Origin: a virus
DNA length: 47,819 nucleotides
Strand: one strand, 5' to 3'
IMG/VR virus record: IMGVR_UViG_3300031111_000016
Location: 1 to 47,819 of that record
Within the stretch, counting starts at the first letter, position 1. Each line of letters starts with the position of its first letter. The notes under the pieces were generated by a model, which did not search any database, was not told where the DNA came from, and saw only the letters and a list, made by a program, of their open reading frames with translations. Of this stretch, positions 21 to 42,780 are shown one piece after another. Position numbers and translations under genes: made by a program.

Positions 21-1847
21 ATGAAAAAAGTCATTATCGTCTTGGCCTTAATTTTTGTTGGATACCTATCCCCTCAGGCCCAGATGACATCGGTAACTAA
101 AAGCTGGGTCAGGACTATAATAGGAGACTCATTAACGAATTATTCTGACACTAGTCATTCGCACGACTCGATCACCGCTAATAACTTAAACGTTCGTGGA
201 GATATTACCGTGTCAGGTAATATAATCAATATCCAGTGGGCGCACGACCTTGACACCTCTAAGGCGTGGATGCAACGGGCAGATACCTATCTTGACTTGC
301 CAGTAACATTGGTGACCGCCGACTCCGTTTACTTGGAGGACTCCGCTGTTGTGACCCATCCATCTATCCTATACTTTCCTGACGGGTGGAATGGATTTAA
401 GTATTGGCTGGCTTACACTCCTCTAATACCGGGATTCGATGCTGATGAGAACCCGCACATAGCAGTTAGTAATGATGGAGTATCTTGGGGTCTGTTTAAC
501 ACAAATCCAGGCGGCTCTGGGGATACCCTGTATAATCCTCTCTTTGGTATCTTTGGCGCTGGACCATCTATAGACTCCCTAGACGCTACCCATCTATCTG
601 ATCCTGATTTATTCTATACTCACGATGGCAGGCTTGGAATGGTGTTTCGCGCTAATTATAATCCCGAAGTTGGGGCCGGGTCGGATTCGATAGGCCTTTA
701 CGTATCTACTACCGCTGACGGGATAACGTGGACAGGGGTGGCTGAAGAAACCGATTCACTTGGGTGTATCTTTATGAGCGACACCCTGTCTTTGGTATCC
801 CCGTCAATTATAGCGGACACAAACCAGACCTATACTATATTCTTTAACGATTGGGCCACCGATGCCCTTGCAGGCATCGGAAATATGGATACCATGATCA
901 CGTATAAAATATCATCCGCTTACGCAGATAGTAATTGGGGCACGGAGCAAATGTGTACTATCTCACCCACTTCTGGCGACTCTATAATCTGGCATTATGA
1001 CGTTATCCCCTTCGGCGCGGATAACCTAATTATGACGGCAACAATTAACGCCGACGATGTCACTGGTGACGGTGATTTATATCTATATACGTCCGTAGAT
1101 GGGGGAGATACTTGGAGCCGTTTTAGTAAGAGGCTTCTCTGGGGCACAGATGTAGCTGATGACTTTGATAGCAACTTCGTCTATAGACCATCTCCATATT
1201 GGGTACAGGAAGGTGATGAGATATCTCTTGCCTGCTTTTATGGGGCATCGGGCAGAGAAGATAATCTATGGGCCATAGGTCTGGGACATATATATTTTAC
1301 TGACTCCGGCGCAGTTAGCTCCTATCGCGACACCGTGCGGGATTACATCAACGTGGTCAACTTCTACGGAAACCTAGCGCCACCGGATTCGTTTAAAGCC
1401 GTGCCGTGGCTGTTCGATACAACTACCGATGATCTGTGGATGTGCGTTGACTCTAATATCTCAGCGGCTCAAGATGACCAACGTGATAAGCTCATCGCTG
1501 ACTTCGGAAGGATACCTTACGGAATCATACATATAGATAGTCTATGTTTCCGATATAAAACATCGTCAGCAACGGCGGCTACATCTTCTATCGACAGCCT
1601 CATCATCAAAGGGCCACTCTCGGAAGCTGCTGGATATAAGCAAAGTGACTCTATCTTTTGGGACAGCACCACAACTATAGCCAGTACCGGCGAAGGTTGG
1701 GTACAGGTAGCCGTTAATAAAAACGTTACAGCTTTCGACTGGATAACGTTGCACTACGAGATACTGGCCGATCACGGTGAAGAGGTATATATCGGCCCGC
1801 CAATCTTGGTCGTTGACCGGGAACGTATAATAGAGGCAGGTAAATAA
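21..1847 (+). CDS. Exported beta-propeller protein, probable tail-associated glycan-binding protein or glycosidase
   Basis: 608 residues. The N-terminus (MKKVIIVLALIFVGYLSPQAQ region) is a clear Sec signal peptide with two lysines, a hydrophobic core and a small-residue exit near residue 20. The body has Asp-box-like turns (SNDGVSW, TADGITW, SVDGGDTWS) and a PDGWNGFKYW stretch followed by ENPHIAVSNDG, as in five-bladed propellers of the GH43/sialidase type. I do not identify a complete catalytic set, so binding is as likely as hydrolysis. The C-terminal 150 residues look like a beta-sandwich. The start is supported by AAGGGA seven bases upstream. It is the first of five consecutive genes with export signals and probably belongs to the receptor-binding module downstream of the tail hub. 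The next gene starts in a TAATG overlap. Confidence 0.6.
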   Translation: MKKVIIVLALIFVGYLSPQAQMTSVTKSWVRTIIGDSLTNYSDTSHSHDSITANNLNVRGDITVSGNIINIQWAHDLDTSKAWMQRADTYLDLPVTLVTADSVYLEDSAVVTHPSILYFPDGWNGFKYWLAYTPLIPGFDADENPHIAVSNDGVSWGLFNTNPGGSGDTLYNPLFGIFGAGPSIDSLDATHLSDPDLFYTHDGRLGMVFRANYNPEVGAGSDSIGLYVSTTADGITWTGVAEETDSLGCIFMSDTLSLVSPSIIADTNQTYTIFFNDWATDALAGIGNMDTMITYKISSAYADSNWGTEQMCTISPTSGDSIIWHYDVIPFGADNLIMTATINADDVTGDGDLYLYTSVDGGDTWSRFSKRLLWGTDVADDFDSNFVYRPSPYWVQEGDEISLACFYGASGREDNLWAIGLGHIYFTDSGAVSSYRDTVRDYINVVNFYGNLAPPDSFKAVPWLFDTTTDDLWMCVDSNISAAQDDQRDKLIADFGRIPYGIIHIDSLCFRYKTSSATAATSSIDSLIIKGPLSEAAGYKQSDSIFWDSTTTIASTGEGWVQVAVNKNVTAFDWITLHYEILADHGEEVYIGPPILVVDRERIIEAGK

Positions 1848-3202
1848 TGAGATACCTATCTATCATATTATTGCTGGTATCTCTTGCTGGAGTCGCTGCG
1901 GCAGACAGCACCTCATTCGGTTTCGACGGCACGGCCAGCAGTTACACGGCGATGGACACCGGTTTCGTGGGTATTAACTGGTTGGACTCATGGACGTGGA
2001 CGGGGCCGTCACTTGTGGTAGACTCCGGTGCGGTCAAGTTACGCGCGGCGATGGATAGCACCTGGATGAAAATGGCGATATGGAAGAACCCTGAACGTAA
2101 TGACGCCCTGGCGGCTTGTAGCTTAGTATACGAAACCGATACCTTGACCTCTACCGGCTTCCCGTCTCCAGAGTGGAATTATTTTACCGATTGGTCGGGG
2201 GCGGATACCCTTCACTCAGGATATACCTATCGTGTTGGCGTACGTGGGTGGACGCGAGCAGGCAACGGTGGCTTTCAATATAAGCACTCGCCCTATTATG
2301 CTTCTGGTAGCGCGGGTGATGGATACGTCGATACCGTAGCTGTGGGGGCCACCATAACTACGGCGGCATCATTTTCATCGGTCAGTTTTAGATACGCATT
2401 TATCGTATGGGCACACACGGCAGACAAGGACACGGTAATATTCTTAGACGCCAACACCGCCGATTCTATCGGTTGGAGAGATACTAGGCTGTATCAAAGT
2501 GGAAGCGAAGCCGCCGGTGGATATGGCGAGTGGGGTATCTGCGGTGATGACGCTGAGAACGAACAACAAATTATGATTTTCGCCCACGACTCCTTAACGG
2601 CGTGGATGCCAGACGACAGGGTCGTTGATTCTGCGTGGATAAGGACGTTCTTCTTGGCGTCTGGCAGGACTCATACGGATACTATCCACCCCAATGCAAG
2701 ATACCTGTTAAGAGACTGGGACGAAGATACTACCTGCTGGACTCTCTACGATGAAGGCGCGAGTTGGACTTACGGTGGCGCTGCGGGAACCGGAACCGAC
2801 TGCGCTGATCGCGTGGAGAATGCCGACACCGTAGTGCGCAACGCCTATGGAACCTGGTCTGATGAGATCGATACGACAGGCCTTAGTGACTCTCACGATT
2901 CTGCCGATTGGTGGTTGTCTCCGGTCACGCTTGACTCTATGAATGGTGGAGACCTATCCAACTATGGTTGGAGGATCGGGCCAGACACGGTTAATAATGG
3001 GCAAGATAAACTGGGTATGAGATGGCACAGCCGCGACTATACAAGTAATCCTCAGTACAGGCCAAGAATATATATATTTATGAGCGAAGCAGAAGGGGAA
3101 CCGGAACCGCCAGCGTCAGGGCCAATTAAGGCTAGACATTCTCCCGATGGATCTGGCGTTAGGCATTCTCCCGATGGATCTAGCGAAAGGCATAAGCCAT
3201 GA
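1847..3202 (+). CDS. Exported DNRLRE-like beta-sandwich protein
   Basis: 451 residues. The first 20 residues (MRYLSIILLLVSLAGVAAA) form a classical signal peptide with an AAA-D exit. The rest is rich in Trp, Asp, Thr and Gly. The second half (about residues 255-420: DSAWIRTFFLASG, then W-D/E-rich and GGA stretches) resembles the DNRLRE/disaggregatase-related sandwich found in extracellular adhesins; this is family-level inference. The C-terminus carries a short tandem repeat (RHSPDGS twice, then RHKP), encoded by near-identical DNA at about 3133-3190. Start and stop overlap both neighbours (TAATG upstream, ATGA downstream), so translation is probably coupled. Likely a fibre or adhesin, or a protein secreted by the infected cell. 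Confidence 0.55.
   Translation: MRYLSIILLLVSLAGVAAADSTSFGFDGTASSYTAMDTGFVGINWLDSWTWTGPSLVVDSGAVKLRAAMDSTWMKMAIWKNPERNDALAACSLVYETDTLTSTGFPSPEWNYFTDWSGADTLHSGYTYRVGVRGWTRAGNGGFQYKHSPYYASGSAGDGYVDTVAVGATITTAASFSSVSFRYAFIVWAHTADKDTVIFLDANTADSIGWRDTRLYQSGSEAAGGYGEWGICGDDAENEQQIMIFAHDSLTAWMPDDRVVDSAWIRTFFLASGRTHTDTIHPNARYLLRDWDEDTTCWTLYDEGASWTYGGAAGTGTDCADRVENADTVVRNAYGTWSDEIDTTGLSDSHDSADWWLSPVTLDSMNGGDLSNYGWRIGPDTVNNGQDKLGMRWHSRDYTSNPQYRPRIYIFMSEAEGEPEPPASGPIKARHSPDGSGVRHSPDGSSERHKP
3133..3190 (+). repeat. Short tandem repeat inside the DNRLRE-like gene
   Basis: The word AGGCATTCTCCCGATGGATC, or a one-base variant of it, occurs twice in succession and a truncated third copy (AGGCATAAGCC) follows. 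It encodes the C-terminal RHSPDGS repeats, which end the protein just before the next gene. Such repeats can change copy number by slippage. Confidence 0.75.
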
Positions 3203-5219
3203 TAAGATACCTATCTCTGATAATATTATTGATTCTTATATCTTCGAACTTTTCTTATAGCCAAACTGTTTATCCTGCTGAAGGCTATGAGTATATAGGG
3301 CCAAATGTAACTCCTACTGCCCCTATAAGCCCTGCTGGATCTACTCTTGTAGAATCGAGTGACCTTCCGCTAACTATTACATCAGACGATCAGATTTTTT
3401 ATCTTGACGGTAATGTTACGACTTCGGGAACCGCTATTACAATTAACTCGCAGGTAAACCGTATTAGATTTAACGGCAATGGGGATACTATCTTCTTCGG
3501 AACTGGTAACGGTAACGCTACTAGTGGACTAGCATTTCAGCTTTGGGGCAGTAACATTACTGACATACACTTCCAGAACGTTACTTTTTACCACCTGCCT
3601 AGCGACACCAGCGCTGACTCAACTTACGCATTCAGGATCCTATCTAACGTCTCTAAACGTATAAGATTTGACACTTGCAACTTTCACGTATTTGGTAAAC
3701 GTGACTCATCGTCTATTTTAGAAGATTCATCTTTCGTGGCGGGAGAGGCCCAAGCCGTAAGCGATCAGGGCAATGCGGGAGCTGATCAACAATCTGTTAT
3801 CTTCTACGGTGGATCTATGACCGCAACTGCCTGGGGATATGAGAACCGTATGCACGAAGATGGGTTCACGGTAGTCGTTAAAGCTTCTAACACGGATATA
3901 GTAGATAATGACTCTATATATAATTATATATTTCACGATGTCAATGTCGAAGGTATAGGCGGCATGTCAGTAGAAGGGCGAACGTGGGTATCCGCTTGCT
4001 CTATATCTGTAGACGCCAGGAACCTAAGATACTGGAGATCTAACTATGGAAACTGGGATGCTCACCAGGGGTGCGCTAACCAGGCCGGTTTAGCTAGCGG
4101 TGACGCTGTAGCTCCAAGCCGCTGGACAAATAATTATATCGTTGCCGGATACGATAACGAAGGGATGGATGAAGGGATCATTTTAGATGGAGCTTGCCTT
4201 AAGAGATCCATCACTAATGCCGATAGCGTAGTACAAATAGATAGCAACTATGTCAAGGTGCACTTTCGCGTAGATCCATCATACCAGTTAGATCTATACG
4301 CTAAACCGACAACTTTTAGATACGGAAATAAAGACGCTTGGGTTCATCATAACACTTTTATAGCTGAAGTTGGAGATACTAACTCTGATTCTGCCTGGGG
4401 GCCAAATTCATGGTTGCTTAAATGGAATGCCAGTCCTGACGTAGAAAGCTCACGTGGTAAAGATAGTAATTTCGTATATGAAAATAATTACCACGAGATA
4501 GTACCTAAAACCAGCACGTTAACAATGGGACACCAAGAATTTATTGGGTTAGCTTTTAACGTAGATGATAACGGAGACTCCGCTGAGTATAAACCGGAAG
4601 ACTATGACATACACTTCAGATATAATTATATCAAGACTCCCCAGTGGGCTTATACCTTTGGATCTTCTGACGGGTGCAGTCAATTTATGAATCGGTGTTA
4701 TGGCGATACTATAGAGTTTTTTGTCTCGGATACCTCTATAGTTCATTATACAGCGGTTAATCATCCGGCTGGTTATGGTGAAGGGAACCTTGGATATTAT
4801 AACTATGTCAAAGACGTTACTTATACCGGAACAGGTGAACCTGATAGTTTAATAAGCCTTTATCCAGGTTTTTCTGGTTTGAGTCTAGGATTACAAAGGA
4901 CATTATCCATATTAGTTCTTAAGGATGGATCTCCGGTTAACGGAGCTTCTCTTTGGGTTGTAAATAACTATTCCGACACTATCGTGGACACCACGACAGG
5001 CGCTAACGGTCTTATAGAACCAATAGTTAAATATTATGAAGAGTTTAGTGATTATCCGGATTCAACTTCATATAACGATTTCACCTTTGGAGCCGCCTAT
5101 GATGGAGACACTTCAACGACAAAATTTACAGTTAACTGGGATACCTACACGGACACGATAGTTCTTTCGCCAACTACAGGAGAAAGTTCTAGATGGAACA
5201 TATTAAAAGGGATTAAAAG

Positions 5220-5223
<4 letters not shown>
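3199..5223 (+). CDS. Exported right-handed parallel beta-helix protein, probable tail spike or adhesin
   Basis: 674 residues. Residues 1-21 (MIRYLSLIILLILISSNFSYS) form a signal peptide. From about residue 55 the chain has short strands ending in asparagine-containing turns (ITINSQVNRIRFNGNGDTIFF, then NITDIHFQNVTFYH), the pattern of a pectate-lyase-like solenoid. This is followed by an N/D/Y-rich middle. The last 100 residues (LSILVLKDGSPVNGASLWVV onward) look like a carboxypeptidase-regulatory or Ig-like sandwich. The start ATG overlaps the previous stop (ATGA) and the stop overlaps the next start in the same way. Parallel beta-helices are typical of phage tailspikes, but a Sec signal is unusual for a virion protein. 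No catalytic site was recognised. Confidence 0.6.
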
Positions 5224-5600
<377 letters not shown>

Positions 5601-5602
5601 AT

Positions 5603-8600
5603 ATGAAAAAAGAAAAATGGACAGCTTCGGAAATATGCCTTATTACGGCGGGTATCTTAATTGCGCTTTTTCTATGGGCCGCTCCGAAAGCTATGGGATC
5701 CACCCTTAATGCTCAAATTTTTCACGATTCTAATGCTGGAGACTCCGGTAGTGTTTGGGTTATATCAGCGTTATCGGGAAATATACTGGACTCAGCGACT
5801 TTATCAGAAGACGCCACGAGGCAGGGAGCTTGGTGGACAGCTTCATTGACGGTAGAAGACCCGGGACCATTATTTATTTGGGGATACGTGCTAGAAGGTT
5901 CTGAGCCTTATTTTACTTCATACGAAGTTGATGTAACATCCGACTGGATCTTAGATACGGTGCAAAGCCAATCTTCCTGGGCGGCTAAAGAAGCTTCTTT
6001 ATTCGATCCGTCTACTGATAGTGTTCTTGTAGACGTGTCTGCCGCTGGAGAAGCAGGAGGATTAGCATCCACAATAGAAGATACTATCTACGCCCATACA
6101 GATGACTATAAAGCGACCGGGTTCTCTACCTTTGATGCTTCTGCCGAAAGCGTCTTTGTAGATGTATCTGCCGCTAGTGACGATGGCGGGTTGCTATCTA
6201 TTATGGCAGATACCTTAACCGACTATGCCTTCGTTGCTGATGATACCGTCAAAAGCGGTGACTCGATAGGTATCTTTGGTTCTACTACTATGTTATCGTG
6301 GAAGCAATGGAAGGTGACTAACCAAGCCGGTGATGCTGTTGTATTCACGGGTGGCCTTGGCGGCGGCGAGCCTGTAACCGGCGATGGCTTCAAGGTACAA
6401 TCGAACTATGGTGACGGATTCCAAGCCACATCCAGCGCAAACGGTTACGACATTAACGCCGACATACAGGGAGACTTATCCGGTGATGTTGGTGGGGTAG
6501 GTAATGCTGGTATCGCCACGGCCTCATTCGCGGCGGGAGCTATCAACGCAACCGCGCTTGCTACCGACTGCATTACAGCAGACAAGATAGAGGCTGACGC
6601 TATCGGAGCGAGTGAAGTTAATTCGGATCTCTCCGGTACTACTGGAGAGATTGCCACTGGCGTTTGGGGATATAACGTTCTTGGATCTGCCAGTCGTGGC
6701 TTAACTTACTTCGATGAAGATAATATGTCAATAGATCTCGATGCGACCACTTTCGGTACAGTTGCGACAGTTACTAACGCCGTTACTATTAGCGATGCTT
6801 CTATAGCTGACATCGAAGATACTATCTACTATAACCGCGCCGACTATGGAGCCACGGTGGCTAACGTCTGGGCTTACGATACTTCCAGCGCGACATCCGG
6901 TATAGGTCTTATGCTTAAGGACACCGCTGCGTATCAGGGATCCGCTTCAGGATTATCGGCGGCATCTATTATGGACAGCCTCTTCAACCGTCTCGTGTCT
7001 GACACAGCTACCGGCACGTTTATGGCTGATCTTATTAGATACTGCGCTCTTTCTGGGGATACCTCTCTCTGGGCTAATATAACGGACGTCTGGCAGAATG
7101 TTGACACGGCGGGAACAGTAGATACCTCAGAAATCGGCGCGTGGTTTGAAAGTTGGATCGCTCACCAAAGCACAGCTGACAGCGGATATAATCAGGCCAC
7201 TAGTGCTTATAACGAAATAGTTGCCGCCAGAGAAACTTTAGCCTTATACGATACCAGGTTAGATAGTATCCTTGACGGTGTTTCCGATGTATCTATAGGA
7301 GATAAAGTGTGGATTGATGCAGGCACGAGGACTCTTAGCTCATATATTTGGAGCGCAGATTACAGGGATTCTGTTCTTGGAGCTTTGTCCGATATAGCGA
7401 AACCTTTTTATAAGGCCACGGGGTTCTCTACCTTTGATGCTTCTGCCGAAAGCGTCTTTGTAGATGTTAGCGCAGCTGGAGAGGCAGGAGGCCTGGCATC
7501 CATGATCGAAGATACTATCAACGCCAATGCTTCTGATTATAAGGCTACTGGGTTTAGTAGCCATACTGCCGCTGACGTGTGGTCTTCTGTAGCAAGGACT
7601 CTTACGGAGTTAGACGAAGACAACACTACTATAGATATCGATGACTTGACTATAGGCGCAGTAACTTCGGTAACTAATGACGTTGGCATCACCGATGCCG
7701 ATATGGCGGCTATCGAAGATACTATCCACGCCCACGCGGCTGACTATATGGCTGACGTTGCGAGCTTATCCACCTTTGATCCAGCCTCTGATAGCGTGAT
7801 CGTGGACGTGTCGGCGGCGATAGCCGATAGTGGCCTTGGTCATAAGATCGCTGATAAGGTTCTCGATGAGGACACCGCAGACCACTACACTCCAGGGCAG
7901 TTCGCGTACGAAGCTTCCCAAACTGCCGCCACGGCTCTTACCGCTGCTGCAATTTGGGCTTACGATACTTCTAATGCTACTTCCGGTATAGGTCTTATGC
8001 TTAAGGATACCTCAGCGTATCAGGGATCTGCTTCAGGATTATCGGCAGCAACTATTTGGGCTTACGACACTTCTAATGCTACTTCCGGTATAGGTCTTAT
8101 GCTTAAGGATACATCAGCGTATCAGGGATCTTCCGCTGGCGGAGGTTCCGACACAGCCGCTATAAGAGCTATGATGGAAGATGAAGGGTTCACCCCTACC
8201 AGTATAGCAGAAACTACTTACACTAAGTTTACTGATGGATCTAACGCCGATGCTTTTAAGGCTGACGCCGGTTCCGACACTACGGCAATAAGAACCATGA
8301 TGGAAGACGAAGGGTTCACCCCTACTAGTATAGCGGAAACTACTTACACTAAGTTCACAGATGGAACCAACGCTAATAACTTTAAGGCGACAGGGTTCTC
8401 TACGCACTCCGCGGGTGACGTTTACCAGTATTTTACTAACTCTACTAATGAGGATGCTTTTAAGGCTACAGGGTTCTCTACGCACTCACCCACCGATGTG
8501 TCCGATGCAACGTGGGCGAAGTTTAATGACGGATCTAATGAGAACAATTTCAAGGCTGACGTAAGTGGGATAAGCACTCACTCTGAGCTTGACGTTTATA

Positions 8601-9436: not shown

Positions 9437-9439
9437 AAC

Positions 9440-9697
9440 ATGAGTGTAGAACAGTATTGGCCTTTCTTGGTAGGTGCTTTTATAACGCCTATAACGCAAT
9501 GGCTTAAACTACGACTGCCTGGAGATTGGCCTATCACCCCGGTGGGTATCTCTTTGATATTATCTGTGTTGCTAGCTTTGGTCTTAGCTAAGATCCTATC
9601 TGTACCAGCGACTACTGCCGATTTGGTTTTATGGGTTCTTGGAATGAATGTAACGGCGCAGGTAACACACGCAGCTAAAAAGACCGTGACAAAATGA
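9440..9697 (+). CDS. Small membrane protein, candidate holin
   Basis: 85 residues with two hydrophobic stretches: about residues 7-20 (WPFLVGAFITPITQWL) and about 33-52 (ITPVGISLILSVLLALVLAK), with a third weaker one near 60-75. The C-terminus is basic (HAAKKTVTK). Size, topology and position a little upstream of the endolysin fit a phage holin, which would open the inner membrane at lysis. There is no sequence motif for holins, so this is an inference from context. It starts four bases after the fibre gene and is followed by a strong hairpin. Confidence 0.55.
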   Translation: MSVEQYWPFLVGAFITPITQWLKLRLPGDWPITPVGISLILSVLLALVLAKILSVPATTADLVLWVLGMNVTAQVTHAAKKTVTK

Positions 9698-9718
9698 GAT
9701 CCCTCTTTTATTCCCCCT

Positions 9719-9748
9719 GCCCCCACCGCGCGAAAGCACGGTGGGGGT
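9719..9748 (+). terminator. Strong GC-rich hairpin after the holin candidate
   Basis: CCCCCACCG pairs with CGGTGGGGG, and the inner part can extend around a GAAA tetraloop with one mismatch. It sits in the 68-base gap between the holin candidate and the next gene. There is no long T-run after it (TGCCCTTAATT), so it may be a weak terminator or a processing/stability element. Confidence 0.55.
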
Positions 9749-9771
9749 GCCCTTAATTAAGGAGAATGACT

Positions 9772-10212: not shown

Positions 10213-10213
10213 T

Positions 10214-11071: not shown

Positions 11072-11078
11072 GGAACCT

Positions 11079-30825: not shown

Positions 30826-30852
30826 AAAAACCTCCGGTTTGAGATTCACTAT

Positions 30853-31328: not shown

Positions 31329-31353
31329 TTTAATCGGTGGTGGCGTCCTAAAT

Positions 31354-31380: not shown

Positions 31381-31386
31381 AGCTAT

Positions 31387-31413
31387 GTCCAGGCCATAAA
31401 AAAAGTCCTGGAC
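31387..31413 (+). promoter_or_regulatory. Hairpin between the iterons and the terminase genes
   Basis: GTCCAGG and CCTGGAC form a 7-bp stem around a 13-base loop rich in A. It lies in the leader of the rightward unit, about 45 bases before the terminase start. A leader hairpin or an attenuator is possible; TTATTATAGT at about 31429-31438 could be a -10 element, but no good -35 is seen. Confidence 0.4.
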
Positions 31414-31458
31414 TATCTCTTCTACTTTTATTATAGTTGCTGGCGAAAGGAGCTAATG

Positions 31459-33496: not shown

Positions 33497-33498
33497 CG

Positions 33499-33726
33499 AT
33501 GGGTATTGCAAAAGACGTATACGACATAGTAATCAGAGCAGGTTACTCCATGCCAAAGATACCTATCTTTAAAAACAGTGGAATAATGTTCACGGGACAA
33601 TCCTTAATAAGTATGTGCAGGTTACTTAATATTAAGGATCTTTCCAAGCTTCCAGTCTGGAGAATAAGTGATCAGTATGGATTGAAGAAGGCAGGAAAGA
33701 AAGATGTAGGTGAAACTAAGAGATAA
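33499..33726 (+). CDS. Small hypothetical head-region protein
   Basis: 75 residues; GGAGCTTAACG precedes the ATG. Basic, with a helical C-terminus (LPVWRISDQYGLKKAGKK). Its position between large terminase and portal is where many siphoviruses encode a small head-completion protein, but there is no recognisable motif. The portal start (GTG) overlaps it by 17 bases. Contains the 10-mer at 33558, in the codons for KIPIF. Confidence 0.5.
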   Translation: MGIAKDVYDIVIRAGYSMPKIPIFKNSGIMFTGQSLISMCRLLNIKDLSKLPVWRISDQYGLKKAGKKDVGETKR

Positions 33727-35740: not shown

Positions 35741-35752
35741 CGGAGGATAAGA

Positions 35753-36328
35753 ATGAAACGTATTACTTTAATTCTAGTTGCTTTGGCTCTTATAGTGACG
35801 GCAGGGATCCTATCTCACTATGACGATGTCACTGCTGCTGAAAAACCAAAAGGCCAGAAACTTTCGGAGCAATTCCATTTTGCTCTTGGCCCGGACACAA
35901 CGAAAGCCATCGTTAAAGATACCTTTCTCACGTATACCGGATCAAGTTCTAAGCTCTTTAAGTTTGACGTATCTGACTATGGATCTTGTCAGGGGCATAT
36001 CTATTTTGAATACACTGCGGTGGATACCGGAGGTGGAAACCCTTGCGATAGTGCTAATGACTCCCTCGCTTGGTGGATCTATACCGGAACCGATGGCGAT
36101 GACTCTGCTTATAAGTTGATATATATAGGCGACACCGTCACGGCGGTTCATCCTACTGCTACCGTGGCGGCTGCCGATTATCAAGTTATTCCTAATTTGG
36201 CGGATTCATCTCTTTGGGATAACATATACTTCAGGATAGAACCTATCTTAGCAGATAGCACTTATGCCCAGGGCAGACTTGAAGCTGAACTTCACTATAA
36301 GGCCACCGTAAGATTGTGGGCAAGATAG
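35753..36328 (+). CDS. Exported protein inside the head gene cluster
   Basis: 191 residues; GGAGGATAAGA precedes the ATG. The N-terminus (MKRITLILVALALIVTAGIL) followed by SHYDDVTA forms a signal peptide or membrane anchor. The mature part is a beta sandwich rich in D, T and Y, with a Cys pair (SCQGH and PCDSA). It lies between portal and protease-capsid, where a scaffold or decoration protein is expected, yet those are cytoplasmic. Its composition resembles the exported fibre-like proteins at 21-9436. Function unknown. Confidence 0.5.
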   Translation: MKRITLILVALALIVTAGILSHYDDVTAAEKPKGQKLSEQFHFALGPDTTKAIVKDTFLTYTGSSSKLFKFDVSDYGSCQGHIYFEYTAVDTGGGNPCDSANDSLAWWIYTGTDGDDSAYKLIYIGDTVTAVHPTATVAAADYQVIPNLADSSLWDNIYFRIEPILADSTYAQGRLEAELHYKATVRLWAR

Positions 36329-36331
36329 TCT

Positions 36332-38473
36332 ATGAATAAGAAGTTGAAATATATAGGCGGCAGGATAGTCAAGGTAGACGCGCCTTCTAGCAAAGACATA
36401 GAAGTCTACGCTAATTTCACTTCTACTTTGCCAGAGTGGACTTCTATAGATCCTATCTTACGCACTGAAGGGTGGCTATCTCGATCAGAGCCAGATAGGA
36501 TCTCTGACGTTTTGCCAGGATCGGCGTGGCTTAAGGATCTTGATGATTTTCTTAAGTATCCAATGCTTTTCTTTAACCACGACTCTGACCAGGTTATAGG
36601 TATCTGGACTGACTTACAGGTTCGTGAAGAAGGCCTTTATGGAAAGAACCTTATAGTCGGTACTGAAAAAGGTAAAGAAGTAGCCATGCTCATTAACGCT
36701 GGAGTCCTTAGAGGCTATAGCGTTGGTTTTAACCCAATAAATTGGGAACCTAGAGAAGATGGTGGATACCTCTATAGTAGAGCCGCTCTTATTGAGGGAT
36801 CCATCGTTAGTGTACCGATGCACCTTTTAGCTACCGTAGAGAACGTAGAGGAGATAGTAGAGGAAACGTTGTCAGCGGTAAAGAGTTACACAACGAATAC
36901 ATTTAATATCGTAAATAAAACAGGAGACAAAACAATGCCAGGAACAGAAAAACCCGCTCCCACTCTAGAAGAGTTGGAAGCTCTTGGACAGGTAACTAAG
37001 GAACAGGGCGTTGCCGTTAGTTCCCTTGGTGAAAAATATAATAAGATGGCCCAGATGCTTTCTGAAATGAAACAAACCGCAGAGTCATATGACGGCAACA
37101 TTTCAGATCTTCGACAGCTTATTGATAATGCTACGGGAGACTTCAAGAAGTACCGTGCCGATGTCGATGAAGCTATTAAAGAAGTTAAGACACGGGCCAC
37201 GCGTACGGTTCCTACCGGTATGGAAGGTCTTTCTCTTAAGGAGATGGTAACCAATTATTCTGCTTCTGAAATTCGTGGATCCCTGCCGGTCACCACAGCC
37301 GAACAGGTTCTTAACATTCAGAAACTACATGACGATACTATTATGATAGACGCTTTGATGGAGGCCTCATCTAAGGCTAATGCTGGTGATTATCATAATA
37401 CCCCAAGGAACCAGAGGATCAAAGGTCTTAAGATCTATAAGCGTCTTAATAATTTCGCTAAAGCGATGGATACCCAAACCTCTAGCGAAGGATCTGATTG
37501 GATACCTACCGGGATGTCAACTCAGTTCGTTGAGCTGATATCCATCGACTTGAAGGTGGCGCCTCTTTTCGCAGAGGTAATTATGCCCACGGCTACTTTT
37601 GAAATTGATACCGATGGTGACGATACTATCGCCACCTTGGCCGGTGAATCCACTGCTGTTATATCCGCGTTTAACTCTACTGAAGAAACGCCTGGAACTG
37701 GAAAGATCACCTTGACCGCTAAGAAAGCTCGTGGTAGATACCAGATATCGACGGAGCTTAATGAAGACTCTGCAACGGCTATCATGCCATTTGCTATTGG
37801 CAAGATCACTAAGAGCCTATCCCGCGCTGAAGATCGAGCTATTGTTAATGGCGATATCACTACATCGGGAACCGGCCACTTTGATTCTGGGCATACGGTA
37901 GCCGCTAGCGACTTCCGTCACGCCTGGGATGGTCTAAGATACCATTGGTATGTGAGTATTAACGGTAGCTCTGCGGGAACCTACTGCGGTACGGATCTCT
38001 CTACTTTTAATGAGGATGGAGTTAATGAAGTAAGAGCGAAGATGGGCAAATACGGTCTTTATCCTTCTGAGCTTGCTTGGATAGCTTCCGTGGAGACTTA
38101 TCTCTTGCATCTTCTTAAGGATCTCGATAACTTCCAGACTCTTGAAAAGTATGGACCAAACGCAGTTGTTCTTAGCGGTGAACTTGGAAGAATGTATAAC
38201 GCTCCCGTTATCGTTTCTGAGTTTGTAGAGGCCACTCAGAATGCTTCAGGTATCTATGATGGCGTCACTACTGATAATACCAGTCTTATTTGCGTTAATC
38301 GGGATATGTTCCTTAGGGGAACAAGAAGAAGTGTCGAGGTTCTTGTCGATAAGAATATTCTTGACGATGTTTATAATGTTGTAGCCCATAAGAGAATGGC
38401 TTTTGCGCCTAAGGCCACTCCTTCTTCGACTCTCAGACCAGTCTCGATTGGTTATAACATCTCTTCTTCCTAA
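36332..38473 (+). CDS. Prohead protease fused to HK97-type major capsid protein
   Basis: 713 residues. About residues 25-170 are a prohead protease of the HK97 (S78) type: FFNHDSD with His83, LRGYSVGF with Ser130 and LIEGSIVSVPMHLLATV. A linker (170-200) is followed by a helical delta-like scaffold region (about 205-300, rich in coiled coil) and the major capsid fold (about 320-713; SSEGSDWIPTGMSTQFVE, GRYQISTELNEDS, ILDDVYNVVAHKRMAFAPKA). A second start at 36935 inside the frame may make the capsid part alone. In most phages these are two genes. The enzyme cleaves scaffold regions during head maturation. Confidence 0.9.
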   Translation: MNKKLKYIGGRIVKVDAPSSKDIEVYANFTSTLPEWTSIDPILRTEGWLSRSEPDRISDVLPGSAWLKDLDDFLKYPMLFFNHDSDQVIGIWTDLQVREEGLYGKNLIVGTEKGKEVAMLINAGVLRGYSVGFNPINWEPREDGGYLYSRAALIEGSIVSVPMHLLATVENVEEIVEETLSAVKSYTTNTFNIVNKTGDKTMPGTEKPAPTLEELEALGQVTKEQGVAVSSLGEKYNKMAQMLSEMKQTAESYDGNISDLRQLIDNATGDFKKYRADVDEAIKEVKTRATRTVPTGMEGLSLKEMVTNYSASEIRGSLPVTTAEQVLNIQKLHDDTIMIDALMEASSKANAGDYHNTPRNQRIKGLKIYKRLNNFAKAMDTQTSSEGSDWIPTGMSTQFVELISIDLKVAPLFAEVIMPTATFEIDTDGDDTIATLAGESTAVISAFNSTEETPGTGKITLTAKKARGRYQISTELNEDSATAIMPFAIGKITKSLSRAEDRAIVNGDITTSGTGHFDSGHTVAASDFRHAWDGLRYHWYVSINGSSAGTYCGTDLSTFNEDGVNEVRAKMGKYGLYPSELAWIASVETYLLHLLKDLDNFQTLEKYGPNAVVLSGELGRMYNAPVIVSEFVEATQNASGIYDGVTTDNTSLICVNRDMFLRGTRRSVEVLVDKNILDDVYNVVAHKRMAFAPKATPSSTLRPVSIGYNISSS
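36935..38473 (+). CDS. Internal start: candidate separate major capsid protein
   Basis: Within the fusion frame, AGGAGA is followed by CAAAACA and ATG at 36935 (residue 202), an ideal ribosome binding site and spacing. The product would be 512 residues, starting MPGTEKPAPTLEELEALGQV, which matches the usual start of a capsid precursor with its N-terminal delta domain. This would yield many capsid subunits per copy of the protease fusion. The internal initiation is inferred from the sequence only. Confidence 0.65.
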   Translation: MPGTEKPAPTLEELEALGQVTKEQGVAVSSLGEKYNKMAQMLSEMKQTAESYDGNISDLRQLIDNATGDFKKYRADVDEAIKEVKTRATRTVPTGMEGLSLKEMVTNYSASEIRGSLPVTTAEQVLNIQKLHDDTIMIDALMEASSKANAGDYHNTPRNQRIKGLKIYKRLNNFAKAMDTQTSSEGSDWIPTGMSTQFVELISIDLKVAPLFAEVIMPTATFEIDTDGDDTIATLAGESTAVISAFNSTEETPGTGKITLTAKKARGRYQISTELNEDSATAIMPFAIGKITKSLSRAEDRAIVNGDITTSGTGHFDSGHTVAASDFRHAWDGLRYHWYVSINGSSAGTYCGTDLSTFNEDGVNEVRAKMGKYGLYPSELAWIASVETYLLHLLKDLDNFQTLEKYGPNAVVLSGELGRMYNAPVIVSEFVEATQNASGIYDGVTTDNTSLICVNRDMFLRGTRRSVEVLVDKNILDDVYNVVAHKRMAFAPKATPSSTLRPVSIGYNISSS

Positions 38474-38483
38474 ACACTAATTA

Positions 38484-38514
38484 AGAGGATGGATCTATAT
38501 AAGATCCATCCTCT
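38484..38514 (+). terminator. Perfect 13-bp stem-loop after the capsid gene
   Basis: AGAGGATGGATCT pairs perfectly with AGATCCATCCTCT around ATATA. It is followed by ATTGAAAGG, so there is no T-run. A partial terminator or RNA stabiliser after the capsid gene would keep capsid expression higher than that of later genes. Confidence 0.65.
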
Positions 38515-38529
38515 ATTGAAAGGATGAAA

Positions 38530-38763
38530 ATGAAAAAGATCAAGCTTCAATTTCGCTGCTCAGTTAAAGGTGGCGTATATTCAGCGGCCAGCGGCGTTAA
38601 GTTTCGTGACGGTGAAATTAAAGATATCCCAGAGGCAGAAGCTCTTAGGATCCTAAAGGATTTTCCCGATAACTTTACCCGCGCCGATATTCCCAAGCCA
38701 GTCAGTTCCGACAATGGATCTGGCAAAAAAGGAAAAGCTGCGAAAGCTGAAAAGGATAAGTAA
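38530..38763 (+). CDS. Small hypothetical head-region protein
   Basis: 77 residues from the ATG at 38530, which lies six bases after AAAGG; the upstream ATG at 38524 is too close. N-terminal beta-rich half (FRCSVKGGVYSAASGVKFRD) and a Lys-rich tail (SGKKGKAAKAEKDK). Position after the capsid gene suggests a head-completion or accessory protein. Not recognised. Confidence 0.55.
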   Translation: MKKIKLQFRCSVKGGVYSAASGVKFRDGEIKDIPEAEALRILKDFPDNFTRADIPKPVSSDNGSGKKGKAAKAEKDK

Positions 38764-39350
38764 TGGCTCTTAAATCGAATGCTCTTGTATCGGTGTCCGA
38801 ATATAAATTATATAGCGGACTTGATACTGATGATGAAAATCTTCATACTGATACTATTGAGACGTTCATTAATATAGCCTCTCAAGCCATAGAAACCTAC
38901 TGCGCCAGATCATTTAGATCTGGCTCAGATACCTACGTGCTTAGTGGAGATGGATCTTCCAGTGTTTACACTCGTTATAAACCAATAACGTCTATAACAA
39001 GTATAGAGTATTGGAATGTTAATGCGTGGGTAGAGGCCACTATAGATCTTTACCCTTATACATATATCAGCGAATCTGGAAAGGTTTACTTTACCGAAGG
39101 CAATGTGTTTTCCTTTGGATCTAATAATTTTCGAATTATATATAGTTATGGATACAGCCTTTCAGAGATACCCCAAGACTTAAAATCCGCTTGTATGATA
39201 ATGGCCCAAAGATCCTATAAACGCGCCCAAGGCAAGGAAGGTCTTAAGTCAGAGTCTTTTGGAGACGCCACGACTTCATACGACTTTAGCACCATACCTG
39301 TCGACGTGTTGCCCATCTTAGATAGGTATCGAAGGAGGTTCATTGCTTAA
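38763..39350 (+). CDS. Head-tail connector protein (HK97 gp6-like)
   Basis: 195 residues. The opening (VSVSEYKLYSGLDTDDENLH) and helices with IETFINIASQAIETYCARSF are typical of gp6-like adaptor proteins, followed by strands (PITSITSIEYWN) and DLKSACMIMAQRSYKRAQGK. Members form the ring under the portal. AAGGA lies seven bases upstream. Confidence rests on both pattern and position. Confidence 0.75.
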   Translation: MALKSNALVSVSEYKLYSGLDTDDENLHTDTIETFINIASQAIETYCARSFRSGSDTYVLSGDGSSSVYTRYKPITSITSIEYWNVNAWVEATIDLYPYTYISESGKVYFTEGNVFSFGSNNFRIIYSYGYSLSEIPQDLKSACMIMAQRSYKRAQGKEGLKSESFGDATTSYDFSTIPVDVLPILDRYRRRFIA

Positions 39351-39729
39351 GTTAAAGATAGATTTTAGTGATGGATCCAGAGGATCTCGCAAATTAAATA
39401 AGTGGGACAGAGCCTCAAAAGCTAACTTAGTTAAAGGCCTTCGTAAAGTTGGATCTTTAATGCTGGGTTCGTACAAAGATAAGATAAGCGGGCTTGGTTT
39501 TGTAAGAGATCCAGGTACTAGTAGAAAGTATTATGGAATACTTTCGGGAGATACTATAAAAACAAGTCGTTGGAAATTGATAGACGGAAATATGGGCGTT
39601 AGGATTGGGCCTCATACTGACTATACGCACTATCCAGAGAAAAAGCGCCCTGCTTTAGGAGATACGTTCAAAGAGAATAAAGAAGCGGCAATAGAGATTA
39701 TAGAAAAGTATGTGTTTAAGGGTTTATAA
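39343..39729 (+). CDS. Tail component, HK97 gp10-like
   Basis: 128 residues with a TTG start that has AAGGAGG four bases upstream, overlapping the connector gene by 8 bases. A basic helical segment (RASKANLVKGLRKVGSLMLG) is followed by short strands and YTHYPEKKRPALGDTFKENK, a pattern seen in HK97 gp10-type proteins that join head and tail. Position between connector and terminator genes agrees. Confidence 0.6.
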   Translation: MLKLKIDFSDGSRGSRKLNKWDRASKANLVKGLRKVGSLMLGSYKDKISGLGFVRDPGTSRKYYGILSGDTIKTSRWKLIDGNMGVRIGPHTDYTHYPEKKRPALGDTFKENKEAAIEIIEKYVFKGL

Positions 39730-40175
39730 TGAGCACTAGAAAAAATATAATCACGTCATTTACAGAGGTGCTAGAAACCTTGACGATAAGTAATGGATAT
39801 TCTAATACTATCAAAGAGGTATCTAGGTATCCTCAAAATGTTTTGCTTGTAGACAAGTCAAAGATACCTCTCTTAATTATAGACGATAAAGGAGAAGATC
39901 TTATTGTTGAAGACTCAACTAATTGTCGCTATAAAATAGATATAGACATAGTTGTTCTTACTGAAAGTTCTTCTATGAACACGGCATTTGATACGGTCCA
40001 GGATATTCTGGCTGATATAAGATACCTGGCCGGTACGGCTCCCGATATAGACGATTCCGTGCTGAGGTTTAAGGTATATGACGCTACTACAATAGCGTAT
40101 GACTATGATAAGAAACGTGCTTGGGCAATCATAAACGCAGATATCTTATACACGAGGTCTAAAAGTGGATATTAG
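39729..40175 (+). CDS. Probable tail terminator or completion protein
   Basis: 148 residues; AAGGGTTTATA precedes the ATG. The alternation of helix (ITSFTEVLETLTISNGYSNT), strands (KSKIPLLIIDD, CRYKIDIDIVVLTES) and a paired helix resembles tail-terminator proteins that sit between connector and tube genes. It is assigned by gene order as much as by sequence. Confidence 0.5.
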   Translation: MSTRKNIITSFTEVLETLTISNGYSNTIKEVSRYPQNVLLVDKSKIPLLIIDDKGEDLIVEDSTNCRYKIDIDIVVLTESSSMNTAFDTVQDILADIRYLAGTAPDIDDSVLRFKVYDATTIAYDYDKKRAWAIINADILYTRSKSGY

Positions 40176-40428
40176 ACTTGACTATGATTTATTGGCAGAT
40201 ACCTTATATGCTAACACAACGGAGCCTTTTTATACTTATTATGATCCATACGATAACGGGATTCTTATAAGGCGTGAGGTATCTAATGATGAGCCAGTAG
40301 GTTTTGTTATAACTCAATATAGTGAAAGAAACTTGTCTTATACTACAGATATTCCTTTTGCGCACGTGATAATCTCCCTGCCTAAAAATTTACCGGAGTC
40401 CAGTGTTATGGAGGTTATAGATGGCTGA
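40165..40428 (+). CDS. Small tail-region hypothetical protein
   Basis: 87 residues, GTG start with GAGG upstream, overlapping the previous gene by 11 bases. Strand-rich (ISLPKNLPESSVMEVIDG at the end). Located between two likely tail-completion genes. Not recognised. Confidence 0.5.
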   Translation: MDIRLDYDLLADTLYANTTEPFYTYYDPYDNGILIRREVSNDEPVGFVITQYSERNLSYTTDIPFAHVIISLPKNLPESSVMEVIDG

Positions 40429-40882
40429 AATATATGGAGAAACCTTTCTTGAAACTGGCCGTGACAAGATAGTATCTCTTATAGAAGATCTTAAAAGCGA
40501 TATGTCCAGCGGATATTCTCCGACAATATCTTACGTGTACGATGGACACTTGCAGGCTGATCTTAATCTTAATGCGGTAAGTGTAGATCTCTTAAGTGCT
40601 AATATGGATCAAGAATCTACAGGAACTTTCGTGATCTATAATATTAACTATAGCGTAAGAGTCCATACTGGATATTCCGATGGATATAACGATGTTATAG
40701 TTAACGCCAGACTTTTAGGATCTATAGTCAATAAGCTTAACGCTAATATTGTTCTTGGCGATAATTATATACTCAAAGAAGTAACGAGCATAGAGCCAGA
40801 TCAAACGTTTGAAGAGACAGAAACTCTTGGCGGTTCTCTCGTAGCAACAATTATGGTATCAGTAGCATATACTCAGGAGTGA
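40421..40882 (+). CDS. Tail-region hypothetical protein
   Basis: 153 residues; GGAGG precedes the ATG. Helix (GRDKIVSLIEDLKSDM) followed by beta-rich stretches (TFVIYNINYSVRVHTGY, LVATIMVSVAYTQE). The layout is like that of the gene at 39729, so one of the two is the tail terminator and the other may be a diverged relative. Function not certain. Confidence 0.5.
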   Translation: MAEIYGETFLETGRDKIVSLIEDLKSDMSSGYSPTISYVYDGHLQADLNLNAVSVDLLSANMDQESTGTFVIYNINYSVRVHTGYSDGYNDVIVNARLLGSIVNKLNANIVLGDNYILKEVTSIEPDQTFEETETLGGSLVATIMVSVAYTQE

Positions 40883-40886
40883 TAGC

Positions 40887-41042
40887 ATGGAACCTATAAC
40901 TATGTCGAAAGAAGAGGCCCAGACTTATAGAGCTAGCGCCCTGGCGGAAAAGCTTGGGATCTCTGTAGAAGAGGCCAAAGAAGTTAAGATGAATGGATTT
41001 AATATAGACAAGGAGATAAACGATGACGATGGTTCTATATGA
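40887..41042 (+). CDS. 51-residue hypothetical protein
   Basis: Read directly from the sequence: MEPITMSKEEAQTYRASALA continues EKLGISVEEAKEVKMNGFN and ends NDDDGSI. CAGGAGTGATAGC precedes the ATG with ideal spacing, and the stop overlaps the next gene by 20 bases. It is helical and acidic. Many siphoviruses have a tiny gene at this point before the tube protein; function unknown. Confidence 0.65.
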   Translation: MEPITMSKEEAQTYRASALAEKLGISVEEAKEVKMNGFNIDKEINDDDGSI

Positions 41043-42048
41043 TAAAAAGCAGTGTCGTGTAGGATTCGCGGAACAGTCTACCTGGCTATCTGCGGAGAAC
41101 GACAACGCCACTGTCGATGAGATGAACGTGGAATCTTTTCAGGTTCTCGATTACTTTAGTTATAACCGAAGAGATGAGAACCATGGCGCCAGGTATCCTG
41201 TAGCCTCTGAGGTATCCGTACATCAATATCACTGCCAACCAAGATTCACGGTTAAGGGGATAGCTGCTCACGACAATCTTGACGTGCTTATTTATTCTTT
41301 TATGCAGAATGTTACGGAGACAGATAAGACTACTCATCACCCTAAGATTTTTACCCTGGCAAGCACTCAACCTGATTTTACTACTGACGCTGGTTATTTC
41401 GCTACTTGGTGGGAGCGAAACCCCCAGGCCTCTAGAAGCCGTAAGGTATCTAGTGTAATTTGCGAAACTCTTAAGCTGACGCTTTCTCCCGATAGTGATT
41501 TTGGACTCGTGGCTTTTGAGGCTCAGATGGTTGGACTTGGCGCTCCGGTTCTTAACTCTGCGCCTTCGGGCACGTGGAATTCAATAGCAACTGATAATTG
41601 GCACCATGGAGGACTTACCACGGTTACTTATTCCACCGGCACTCCAGTATCTTATACTTTACATAGTTATGAGATAGAGCTTAAGCAAAGAATACAAGGT
41701 ATAGGCCACGATGGATCTGGAGGCTATGAGTCGGTAGGTATCTTTGATCGTGAAGGAACCTTTAAGATCTCTGCTATTGAAGATTCTGCAACGGTAAGAT
41801 CCTTCTTTGAAGGTGTCGCTGTCGCTGGAACCCAGACTGATTTTAGGTTCTCTCACGGCGATGCTACTGACGCCGATGATGCCGCCGATGGAGACTTAGA
41901 TATTATTTTCTCTGGTAAGCTGACTAGCGTGCAGCAGAATAAACAAAGTCCTTTGCTAGTGGATATAGAAGGAGACATGCTTGGTGATGACGCTTCGACT
42001 TCACCGCTTCAGGTAATTATTGATAATGGTGAAGATAGAGGTTGGTAA
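41023..42048 (+). CDS. Major tail tube protein
   Basis: 341 residues; AAGGAG lies seven bases before the ATG. Beta-rich throughout with SVICETLKLTLSPDSDFGLV, YSTGTPVSYTLHSYEIELKQ and FFEGVAVAGTQTDFRFS, and an acidic Ala/Asp loop (DADDAADGD). Position directly before the tail chaperones and tape measure is that of the tube protein in siphoviruses. No single diagnostic motif exists, so the call rests on fold pattern and order. Confidence 0.7.
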   Translation: MTMVLYDKKQCRVGFAEQSTWLSAENDNATVDEMNVESFQVLDYFSYNRRDENHGARYPVASEVSVHQYHCQPRFTVKGIAAHDNLDVLIYSFMQNVTETDKTTHHPKIFTLASTQPDFTTDAGYFATWWERNPQASRSRKVSSVICETLKLTLSPDSDFGLVAFEAQMVGLGAPVLNSAPSGTWNSIATDNWHHGGLTTVTYSTGTPVSYTLHSYEIELKQRIQGIGHDGSGGYESVGIFDREGTFKISAIEDSATVRSFFEGVAVAGTQTDFRFSHGDATDADDAADGDLDIIFSGKLTSVQQNKQSPLLVDIEGDMLGDDASTSPLQVIIDNGEDRGW

Positions 42049-42067
42049 AAACGAGAGGAGCACGAGA

Positions 42068-42442
42068 ATGATTGAACTTATTGACGTTAACGAACCGACA
42101 GAGATACGTATCAGTGGCACTAAGATCCTGATAAGGACTCTGGACCGTCGACAGCGCGTAGAATACGCAAAGAAAACAAGTGGCCAAGATTTAGACCACA
42201 TGGGATTTTTGGAGGCCTTATCTGAAGAAATCATAAGTATAAATGGTTGGGATAAGAGTCCTATAGACTATCTTGTCTTAATTAAAGACCATGATGTTAT
42301 CCTTGAGATCCATAGAGCCGTCATGTTTGGATTTACTGAGGAGCAGGAAAAAAACTCAGACTCCTCGTTGGATACGCAGCAGGCGAGTCCAGCGGGGAAA
42401 CCTGCTCAGCCTGTAAAAGAGGGAGAAGCGGATGTCTCTTAG
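42068..42442 (+). CDS. Tail assembly chaperone (lambda gpG-like)
   Basis: 124 residues from the ATG at 42068, seven bases after GAGGAG. Globular helical front (ELIDVNEPTEIRISGTKILI, then RRQRVEYAKKTSGQDL) and a disordered Gln/Pro/Ala tail (DTQQASPAGKPAQPVKEGEA). In siphoviruses this gene yields both a short chaperone and, by -1 frameshifting, a longer GT fusion that helps load the tape measure. A slippery site and open -1 frame are present here (see 42349 and 42355). Confidence 0.8.
   Translation: MIELIDVNEPTEIRISGTKILIRTLDRRQRVEYAKKTSGQDLDHMGFLEALSEEIISINGWDKSPIDYLVLIKDHDVILEIHRAVMFGFTEEQEKNSDSSLDTQQASPAGKPAQPVKEGEADVS
42349..42355 (+). other. Candidate -1 frameshift slippery site A AAA AAC
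   Basis: In the frame of the chaperone gene the codons GAA AAA AAC give the heptamer A AAA AAC, a canonical X XXY YYZ slip site. The -1 frame is closed by TGA at 42337 just upstream but is then open without interruption to 42780. No other convincing heptamer is present before the zero-frame stop at 42440. Confidence 0.7.
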
Positions 42443-42780
42443 ATGGAAGAACCTTAAACGTAAAGTGTCAAGGCGATGAATACCCTGACATCGACATCTC
42501 CATTGATAATTGGACAGAGGTCGTGGAGGCTGTCGATAGAGTTACCCCAGGGTTCCCTGTCGTCATGGCAATTAACCGATATGGAATTTGTCCACTCTCA
42601 ATTATTAGTGATACCTCAAAGGAAATATGGAGTATCTATAACACTTTGCAAGGGGTATCGAGAGTGAGCACACCTAAAGAATTATATGAGATACCTATCC
42701 GGTATGTAGAAGCTTGCTCTATAATAGAGGATGAGAGCAGGCTTATTCCCAGAAAGGAACACCCGAATGGGAACAAGTAA
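42355..42780 (+). CDS. Tail assembly chaperone, T part of a gpGT-like frameshift fusion
   Basis: Reached by -1 slippage, the frame runs 141 residues and includes GCLLDGRTLNVKCQGDEYPD, then WTEVVEAVDRVTPGFPVVMA and a helical end. The predicted fusion is 237 residues. The second frame has no ATG with a ribosome binding site near its beginning; a GTG at 42523 is the only weak alternative. The tape-measure ATG overlaps its end by 14 bases, the standard order G-T-tape measure. Confidence 0.7.
   Translation, partial: LRLLVGYAAGESSGETCSACKRGRSGCLLDGRTLNVKCQGDEYPDIDISIDNWTEVVEAVDRVTPGFPVVMAINRYGICPLSIISDTSKEIWSIYNTLQGVSRVSTPKELYEIPIRYVEACSIIEDESRLIPRKEHPNGNK

What the first reader, a model, noticed from the sequence alone, without database searches (positions are those of the whole stretch)
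61..42699. A dispersed 10-mer, GATACCTATC, occurs 27 times in the genome
Seen directly: I located 27 exact copies of GATACCTATC or its complement (starts listed under the feature at 31319). With equal base use about 0.1 would be expected in 47.8 kb. Copies encode unrelated peptides: IPI (9), DTY (6), YLS (5), IGI (5), DRY (1), plus one intergenic copy, so protein sequence or one codon bias cannot explain them. Twenty of 26 genic copies read GATACCTATC on the coding strand, a clear orientation bias, and seven lie within 2.7 kb at 27.2-29.9 kb. Highly iterated words are known (HIP1 in cyanobacteria, stoperators in mycobacteriophage L5, chi, KOPS), but I know of none with this sequence. It could be a site for a phage or host DNA-binding, segregation, packaging or modification protein, or an RNA element. 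Counts are by eye.
Basis: partly seen in the sequence, partly recalled or inferred. Interest (0 to 1): 0.85.

Follow-up and report, generated by a model that had tools for sequence, protein, structure and literature searches.

The report
Genome-wide iterated GATA–TATC words in phage
This uncultured phage genome is saturated with a short, nearly mirror-symmetric DNA word (GATACCTATC and close variants) in all reading frames and on both strands, about ten or more times beyond what its proteins and codon use predict, as if a sequence-reading DNA protein had shaped the whole genome; which protein, and why, is unknown.

Summary
The count is right: 27 exact copies of GATACCTATC, the commonest 10-mer of the window. 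It acts on DNA, not on translation: both strands, nearly all reading frames and all gene groups are enriched, and dipeptides such as DT and IP are inflated. The 10-mer is the peak of a wider family: R-GATA-(1-2 G/C)-TATC-Y (52 GATA-S(1-2)-TATC sites; 37 with both flanks in coding DNA against 2.7 expected), plus half-words RGATACC, RGATCC and RGAACC. Spacers with A or T are not enriched. Relatives found through the DNA polymerase have no copies, and about 780 bacterial genomes carry only a few per Mb against 565 per Mb here. In strength it matches uptake-sequence loading in Haemophilus phage HP1, but sequence and dyad grammar differ and no host word was found. Most likely it is a HIP/USS-like iterated recognition word of a dimeric sequence-specific DNA protein. 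The reader protein is not identified.

The parts
61..70 (+). GATACCTATC
282..291 (+). GATACCTATC
1851..1860 (+). GATACCTATC
2678..2686 (+). family member GATACTATC (1-base spacer)
3206..3215 (+). GATACCTATC
3484..3492 (+). family member GATACTATC
5334..5342 (-). family member GATACTATC
5502..5511 (+). GATACCTATC
6080..6088 (+). family member GATACTATC (inside a protein repeat)
6265..6274 (-). GATACCTATC
6818..6826 (+). family member GATACTATC (inside a protein repeat)
7262..7270 (-). family member GATACTATC
7511..7519 (+). family member GATACTATC (inside a protein repeat)
7718..7726 (+). family member GATACTATC (inside a protein repeat)
8965..8974 (.). family member GATAGCTATC (perfect palindrome)
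12653..12662 (.). family member GATAGCTATC
13482..13491 (+). GATACCTATC
14598..14606 (-). family member GATACTATC (intergenic)
14639..14648 (-). GATACCTATC (intergenic)
16466..16474 (-). family member GATACTATC
17170..17179 (.). family member GATAGCTATC
18245..18254 (-). GATACCTATC (DNA polymerase gene)
18820..18829 (-). GATACCTATC
19530..19539 (.). family member GATAGCTATC
19936..19945 (-). GATACCTATC
20283..20292 (.). family member GATAGCTATC
20636..20644 (-). family member GATACTATC
22922..22931 (+). GATACCTATC
23994..24002 (+). family member GATACTATC
25470..25479 (+). GATACCTATC
26149..26158 (.). family member GATAGCTATC
27220..27229 (-). GATACCTATC
27688..27697 (-). GATACCTATC
27985..27994 (-). 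GATACCTATC
28456..28465 (-). GATACCTATC
28736..28745 (-). GATACCTATC (intergenic)
29004..29013 (-). GATACCTATC
29861..29870 (-). GATACCTATC
29977..29985 (-). family member GATACTATC
31319..31328 (-). GATACCTATC (intergenic, between divergent gene blocks)
32918..32927 (+). GATACCTATC (terminase large subunit gene)
33558..33567 (+). GATACCTATC
34077..34085 (+). family member GATACTATC
34585..34594 (-). GATACCTATC (portal gene)
35272..35281 (.). family member GATAGCTATC
35626..35635 (+). GATACCTATC (portal gene)
37622..37630 (+). family member GATACTATC
39321..39330 (-). GATACCTATC
40468..40476 (-). family member GATACTATC
42103..42112 (.). family member GATACGTATC (palindrome)
42690..42699 (+). 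GATACCTATC (intergenic by my gene calls)
46985..46993 (+). family member GATACTATC
1..47819 (.). background of half-words spread over the whole window: AGATACCT 61, GATACC 131, AGATCC 149 copies on both strands; enrichment similar in the gene blocks

Best explanation
The word is the best version of a genome-wide iterated recognition site with dyad symmetry, R-GATA-S(1-2)-TATC-Y (S = G or C), with weaker half-sites RGATA-CC, RGAT-CC and RGA-A-CC. Shown: real excess, action on DNA, specificity of arm and spacer, spread over all gene blocks, absence from the relatives found. Inferred: a sequence-specific protein that reads both half-sites, probably as a dimer and tolerant of one base of spacing, has driven these words to about one full dyad per 0.9 kb. 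My commitment is that the sites are kept by selection because the phage's own DNA (replicating, being organised, recombined or packaged) is read at many interchangeable places by a protein coded by the phage or recruited from its host, in the manner of HIP1, uptake words or chi. The protein and the exact process are not identified.
For: 27 copies in all, 23 in CDS against at most 1.2 expected with proteins, codons and junction dinucleotides kept. Both strands and nearly all frames are enriched, in every gene block, in long and short genes alike. Spill into amino acids: DT 124 against 78, IP 65 against 42, GGA-TCT 55 against 12.7, AGA-TAC 18 against 3.2 while AGA-TAT is 4 against 7.4. Of all 4-base arms at spacers 0-6, GATA at spacer 1 (18 against 4.8) and 2 (31 against 4.7) stands out, while inverted repeats as such are not in clear excess (174/191 and 219/196). 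The two halves cooperate: ATC follows GATACCT in 31% of cases but other ACCT contexts in about 4-5%; GATA stands before CC-, GG- and GC-TATC in 37, 21 and 22% but before none of 595 A/T-containing two-base spacers (about 5.6 expected). R before and Y after the dyad are favoured. A 10-12 base context with dyad symmetry is the footprint of a DNA-reading protein rather than of a polymerase or deaminase (general knowledge).
Against: Two spacer lengths and a broad halo of half-words (RGATCC about 2.3-fold) are looser than a normal operator. No relative shares the word, so conservation of sites could not be tested. A sequence-directed mutation or repair bias would give much the same picture.
Confidence: 0.42

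Rival explanations
1. Host word: the phage carries an iterated word of its unknown host (an uptake sequence or a HIP-like word), as Pasteurellaceae phages carry their hosts' uptake sequence.
For: Phage precedent of the same strength: Haemophilus phage HP1 has 17 AAGTGCGGT, 525 per Mb, 13 in CDS against 0.74 expected by the same shuffle, also with a sense bias of 10:3; PMC6776037 reports uptake sequences in nearly all Pasteurellaceae prophages. Here 565 per Mb. Lineage specificity fits a host-specific word.
Against: None of 399 Pseudomonadota, 248 Bacteroidota, 117 Cyanobacteriota and a handful of other genomes has it: at most 42 copies of the 10-mer per genome, single digits of the 12-mer. HP1 has one sharp word with hardly any one-mismatch neighbours, unlike the family here. 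No integrase was recognised, and in PMC6776037 the large, likely lytic phages were poor in uptake sequences.
Confidence: 0.25
2. Mutational ratchet: a methyltransferase or repair system of host or phage that reads RGAT.. sites biases mutation or mismatch repair so that these words accumulate without function, as proposed for HIP1.
For: PMC4390886 proposes this for HIP1 with a set point near one site per kb; here about one full dyad per 0.9 kb. GATC 344 against 255 and GGATCC 50 against 22.5 are also up. Intermediate half-words are abundant. Enrichment is uniform over gene blocks.
Against: C-to-T neighbours of AGATACCT are not depleted (AGATATCT 9/3.5, AGATACTT 8/6.6), against Vsr-like T-to-C repair. 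The only methyltransferase-like gene recognised (20330-20827) is a small Methyltransf_11 type with no assigned DNA target. GATA dyads without GATC are the most strongly enriched.
Confidence: 0.2
3. Ordinary genome signature: codon use, composition or left-over words after restriction-site avoidance.
For: 6-base palindromes are avoided in the window (725 against 843) as in its relatives, and codon use is unusual, e.g. ATA is 48% of Ile.
Against: Codon-preserving shuffles do not give the word; one-mismatch neighbours of AGATACCT are also in excess (130 against 77), not depleted; seven other virus records and about 80 other loci show no comparable pervasive word.
Confidence: 0.06
4. Operators or stoperators of a phage repressor.
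For: More than twenty sites per genome, as in mycobacteriophage L5; 4 of 27 copies lie in the 4.8% noncoding part.
Against: L5 sites are asymmetric, in promoters and short intergenic spaces, and oriented with transcription (PMC9283540); here 23 of 27 are inside genes, orientation follows codon expectation, and no repressor or integrase was recognised.
Confidence: 0.05

Closest known systems
HIP1 (GCGATCGC) of cyanobacteria
   Same: Short iterated word at about one per kb in whole genomes; variants differ by lineage (PMC4390886).
   Different: Perfect palindrome with a GATC core in cellular genomes, linked to GATC/CGATCG methyltransferases; here a virus, a split dyad with a G/C spacer of 1-2 bases, no known methyltransferase, and CGATCG is absent from the window's coding sequences.
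Uptake signal sequences (USS) of Pasteurellaceae and their phages
   Same: Same density and statistical strength in a phage: HP1 525 per Mb against 565 per Mb.
   Different: A single sharp 9-mer shared with the host; here a word family and no host found.
GATC/GGATCC excess in subcluster B3 mycobacteriophages
   Same: Genome-wide, lineage-specific word excess in phages that sister phages lack, unexplained (PMC4841201); GGATCC is also in excess here (50 against 22.5).
   Different: There a 4- and a 6-base palindrome; here 9-12 base dyads with flank and spacer grammar.
Stoperators of mycobacteriophage L5
   Same: Dozens of dispersed sites in one phage.
   Different: Asymmetric, intergenic or promoter, orientation-bound (PMC9283540).

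Membership tests
HIP1 / HIP sequences | sequence GCGATCGC or its CGATCG core over-represented | tested here: not met
   CGATCG 0 against 5.4 expected in CDS
HIP1 / HIP sequences | iterated about once per kb, inside genes, beyond codon expectation | tested here: met
   52 GATA-S(1-2)-TATC sites in 47.8 kb; 47 against 5.4 in CDS
HIP1 / HIP sequences | matching DNA methyltransferase | tested here: inconclusive
   one small methyltransferase-like gene of unknown target; host unknown
Uptake sequences (USS/DUS) | known USS sequence | tested here: not met
   AAGTGCGGT is not among the enriched words; the top words are unrelated
Uptake sequences (USS/DUS) | same word over-represented in the host genome | tested here: inconclusive
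   not seen in about 780 sampled genomes; true host unknown
L5-type stoperators | intergenic or promoter location and orientation with transcription | tested here: not met
   23 of 27 genic; orientation as codons predict
L5-type stoperators | cognate repressor gene | tested here: inconclusive
   no repressor recognised in the Pfam and PHROG scans, which may miss one
Codon or dipeptide bias | word count reproduced by codon- and protein-preserving shuffle | tested here: not met
   23 against 0.74-1.18
Generic inverted-repeat mutation (template switching) | excess of inverted repeats whatever their sequence | tested here: not met
   totals near expectation, GATA arms stand out

The most novel reading that the evidence does not exclude
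A phage-specific HIP-like system: a virus has evolved its own genome-wide recognition code, a split dyad R-GATA-S(1-2)-TATC-Y with graded half-sites, read by a phage or recruited host protein to organise, tag or protect viral DNA, with selection strong enough to change the amino acids of its proteins.
Probability: 0.3. Interest if true: 0.85.

Novelty: new variant of a known kind. Interest (0 to 1): 0.58.

Why it matters
Iterated words have repeatedly led to whole systems (chi, KOPS, uptake sequences, HIP1). Here a compact, lytic-looking genome bends its codons and even its amino acids to carry one dyad about every 0.9 kb. Either way the motif grammar is sharp enough for a pull-down.

Tried and rejected
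Codon or dipeptide bias: rejected by two shuffles. Orientation as a signal: explained by codons. Clustering: marginal for the 10-mer, absent for AGATACCT. Template-switch quasi-palindromes: rejected. Vsr-like T-to-C repair: neighbours do not fit. Restriction avoidance alone: cannot give positive excess of the word and its neighbours. Known RNA element: no Rfam match. Paralogous copies: flanks of the 27 copies are unrelated; four GATACTATC copies lie in a repeated context of one ORF. Close relatives through the Pam3-gp34-like protein and the major capsid: none; terminase gave one at 38%. The closest DNA polymerase relatives have no copies.
Full report
What was checked. The window is a 47,819-base virus record, a tailed phage with terminase, portal, capsid, tape measure, a PolIII-like DNA polymerase, primase-polymerase, ThyX and Pam3 gp33/gp34-like genes. 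GATACCTATC occurs 27 times, 12 on + and 15 on -, and is the top 10-mer. Markov models of order 0 to 4 predict 0.11 to 1.75 copies; only models that already contain 7-mers or longer approach the count.

Beyond codons. I permuted synonymous codons over the genome, keeping every protein and the codon counts: mean 0.74 copies in coding DNA, maximum 5 in 300 runs, against 23 observed. Keeping the dinucleotides across codon junctions as well gave 1.18, maximum 4 in 200. The parent word AGATACCT is 57 against about 6. By frame and strand the excess of AGATACCT is 7- to 13-fold in five of six cases; the sixth has an expectation below one. The sense bias (17:6) is smaller than the 5:1 that the shuffles predict, so it carries no information. 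The cluster at 27-30 kb has p = 0.044 before any correction, and AGATACCT shows none. The excess is alike in all gene blocks and in long and short genes.

The real motif. Enriched words share a grammar. GATA and TATC arms are in clear excess at spacer lengths 1 and 2 only (18 against 4.4, 31 against 4.6). Among all 4-base arms and spacers 0-6, these two are the outliers, and inverted repeats in general are not in clear excess. The spacer is G/C: 27 CC/GG, 7 GC, 1 CG, 10 C, 7 G, against one A and one T. Two-base spacers containing A or T never occur with both arms, although 595 half-contexts exist and about 5.6 would be expected at the base rate (sum and product done by hand). R before and Y after the dyad are preferred; R-GATA-S(1-2)-TATC-Y is 37 against 2.7 in coding DNA. 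The halves cooperate: ATC follows GATACCT in 31% of cases but other ACCT contexts in about 4-5%. Half-words RGATACC (111 against 29.5), RGATCC (242 against 103.5) and RGAACC (95 against 43) are also in excess.

Effect on proteins. Dipeptides that can hold the word are inflated (DT 124 against 78, IP 65 against 42), and within them the word-forming codon pairs are favoured (GAT-ACC 39 against 12; GGA-TCT 55 against 12.7; AGA-TAC 18 against 3.2, AGA-TAT 4 against 7.4). In the DNA polymerase, words sit on conserved and on variable residues alike (identity to ten relatives 0.56 against 0.52 elsewhere), with several GGATCT words at places where most relatives have Asp, Glu or Lys instead of Ser.

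Where else it occurs. Five records of 47-54 kb and one of 31 kb with related DNA polymerases have no copy of the 10-mer and at most one GATA-S(1-2)-TATC, against 52 here. Bacterial genomes carry a few copies per Mb: the highest seen were 42 in 9.5 Mb and 31 in 5.4 Mb; the 12-mer is in single digits in Bacteroidota and Cyanobacteriota. Seven other virus records and about 80 loci gave no comparable pervasive word by the same statistics; relative G003 has a 10-copy element of another kind, mostly just upstream of start codons.

Calibration. In Haemophilus phage HP1 the host uptake word AAGTGCGGT occurs 17 times (525 per Mb; z 13.0 against 21.5 for the word here on an order-3 model) and beats the codon shuffle 13 to 0.74, again with a sense bias (10:3). 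So the phenomenon here is of the strength of a known biologically driven word, but HP1 shows one sharp word and almost no neighbours.

Interpretation. Shown: a real, DNA-level, strand-symmetric, lineage-specific word family with dyad grammar. Inferred: a sequence-reading protein is behind it, because a 10-12 base context with dyad symmetry is not a plausible polymerase or deaminase context. Open: whether the words are kept by selection for a phage function (0.42), inherited from an unsampled host with such a word (0.25) or driven by methylation- or repair-guided mutation without function (0.20). HIP1 is the nearest cellular case (PMC4390886), USS-loaded phages (PMC6776037) and the GATC/GGATCC excess of B3 mycobacteriophages (PMC4841201) the nearest viral ones. 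No paper in the library reports the word in such a role.

Limits. Gene calls are longest-ORF choices. No close relative exists in the collections allowed, so conservation could not be tested. About 780 genomes are a thin sample and the host is unknown. Copies in overlapping genes were not treated separately.

Noticed in passing
Relative G003 (L297-L299): 4573, 4889, 5723, 19346, 37528(-), 37900(-), 38048, 41552, 42298, 46033: Ten copies of AACTTAGAATG, seven of them continuing AAAGG, most just upstream of a possible start codon; probably a phage-specific promoter or translation-start element of this relative.
   Followed up: partly
window 30850-31455: 600-base intergenic region between divergent gene blocks with the densest group of CTAG (8 in 400 bases) although CTAG is under-represented overall, and short repeats ACTAGGCC/GGCCGACTAG: possible origin, promoter or packaging region.
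   Followed up: partly
window 28690-28832: Intergenic inverted repeat GTGACCAGAGG ... CCTCTGGTCAC, a likely hairpin next to a GATACCTATC copy; perhaps a terminator or processing site.
   Followed up: no
window 5567-9436: Large ORF with repeated context (atcgaaGATACTATC three times, gaaGATACTATC four times); short AAGGTCAAGGTCA direct repeats lie within about 1.5 kb of 5.5-6.3 kb.
   Followed up: no
whole window: Six-base palindromes are broadly avoided (CGATCG 0, GAGCTC 0, CTGCAG 1 in CDS) but GGATCC (50 against 22.5) and AGGCCT (22 against 9.1) are in excess.
   Followed up: partly
window 10214-11071: Patatin-like phospholipase gene in a phage genome.
   Followed up: no
L016 (13.7 kb) and L012 (22.8 kb): CGATCG is very frequent in these DNA polymerase relatives (about 34 sites each), whereas the window's coding sequences have none.
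   Followed up: no
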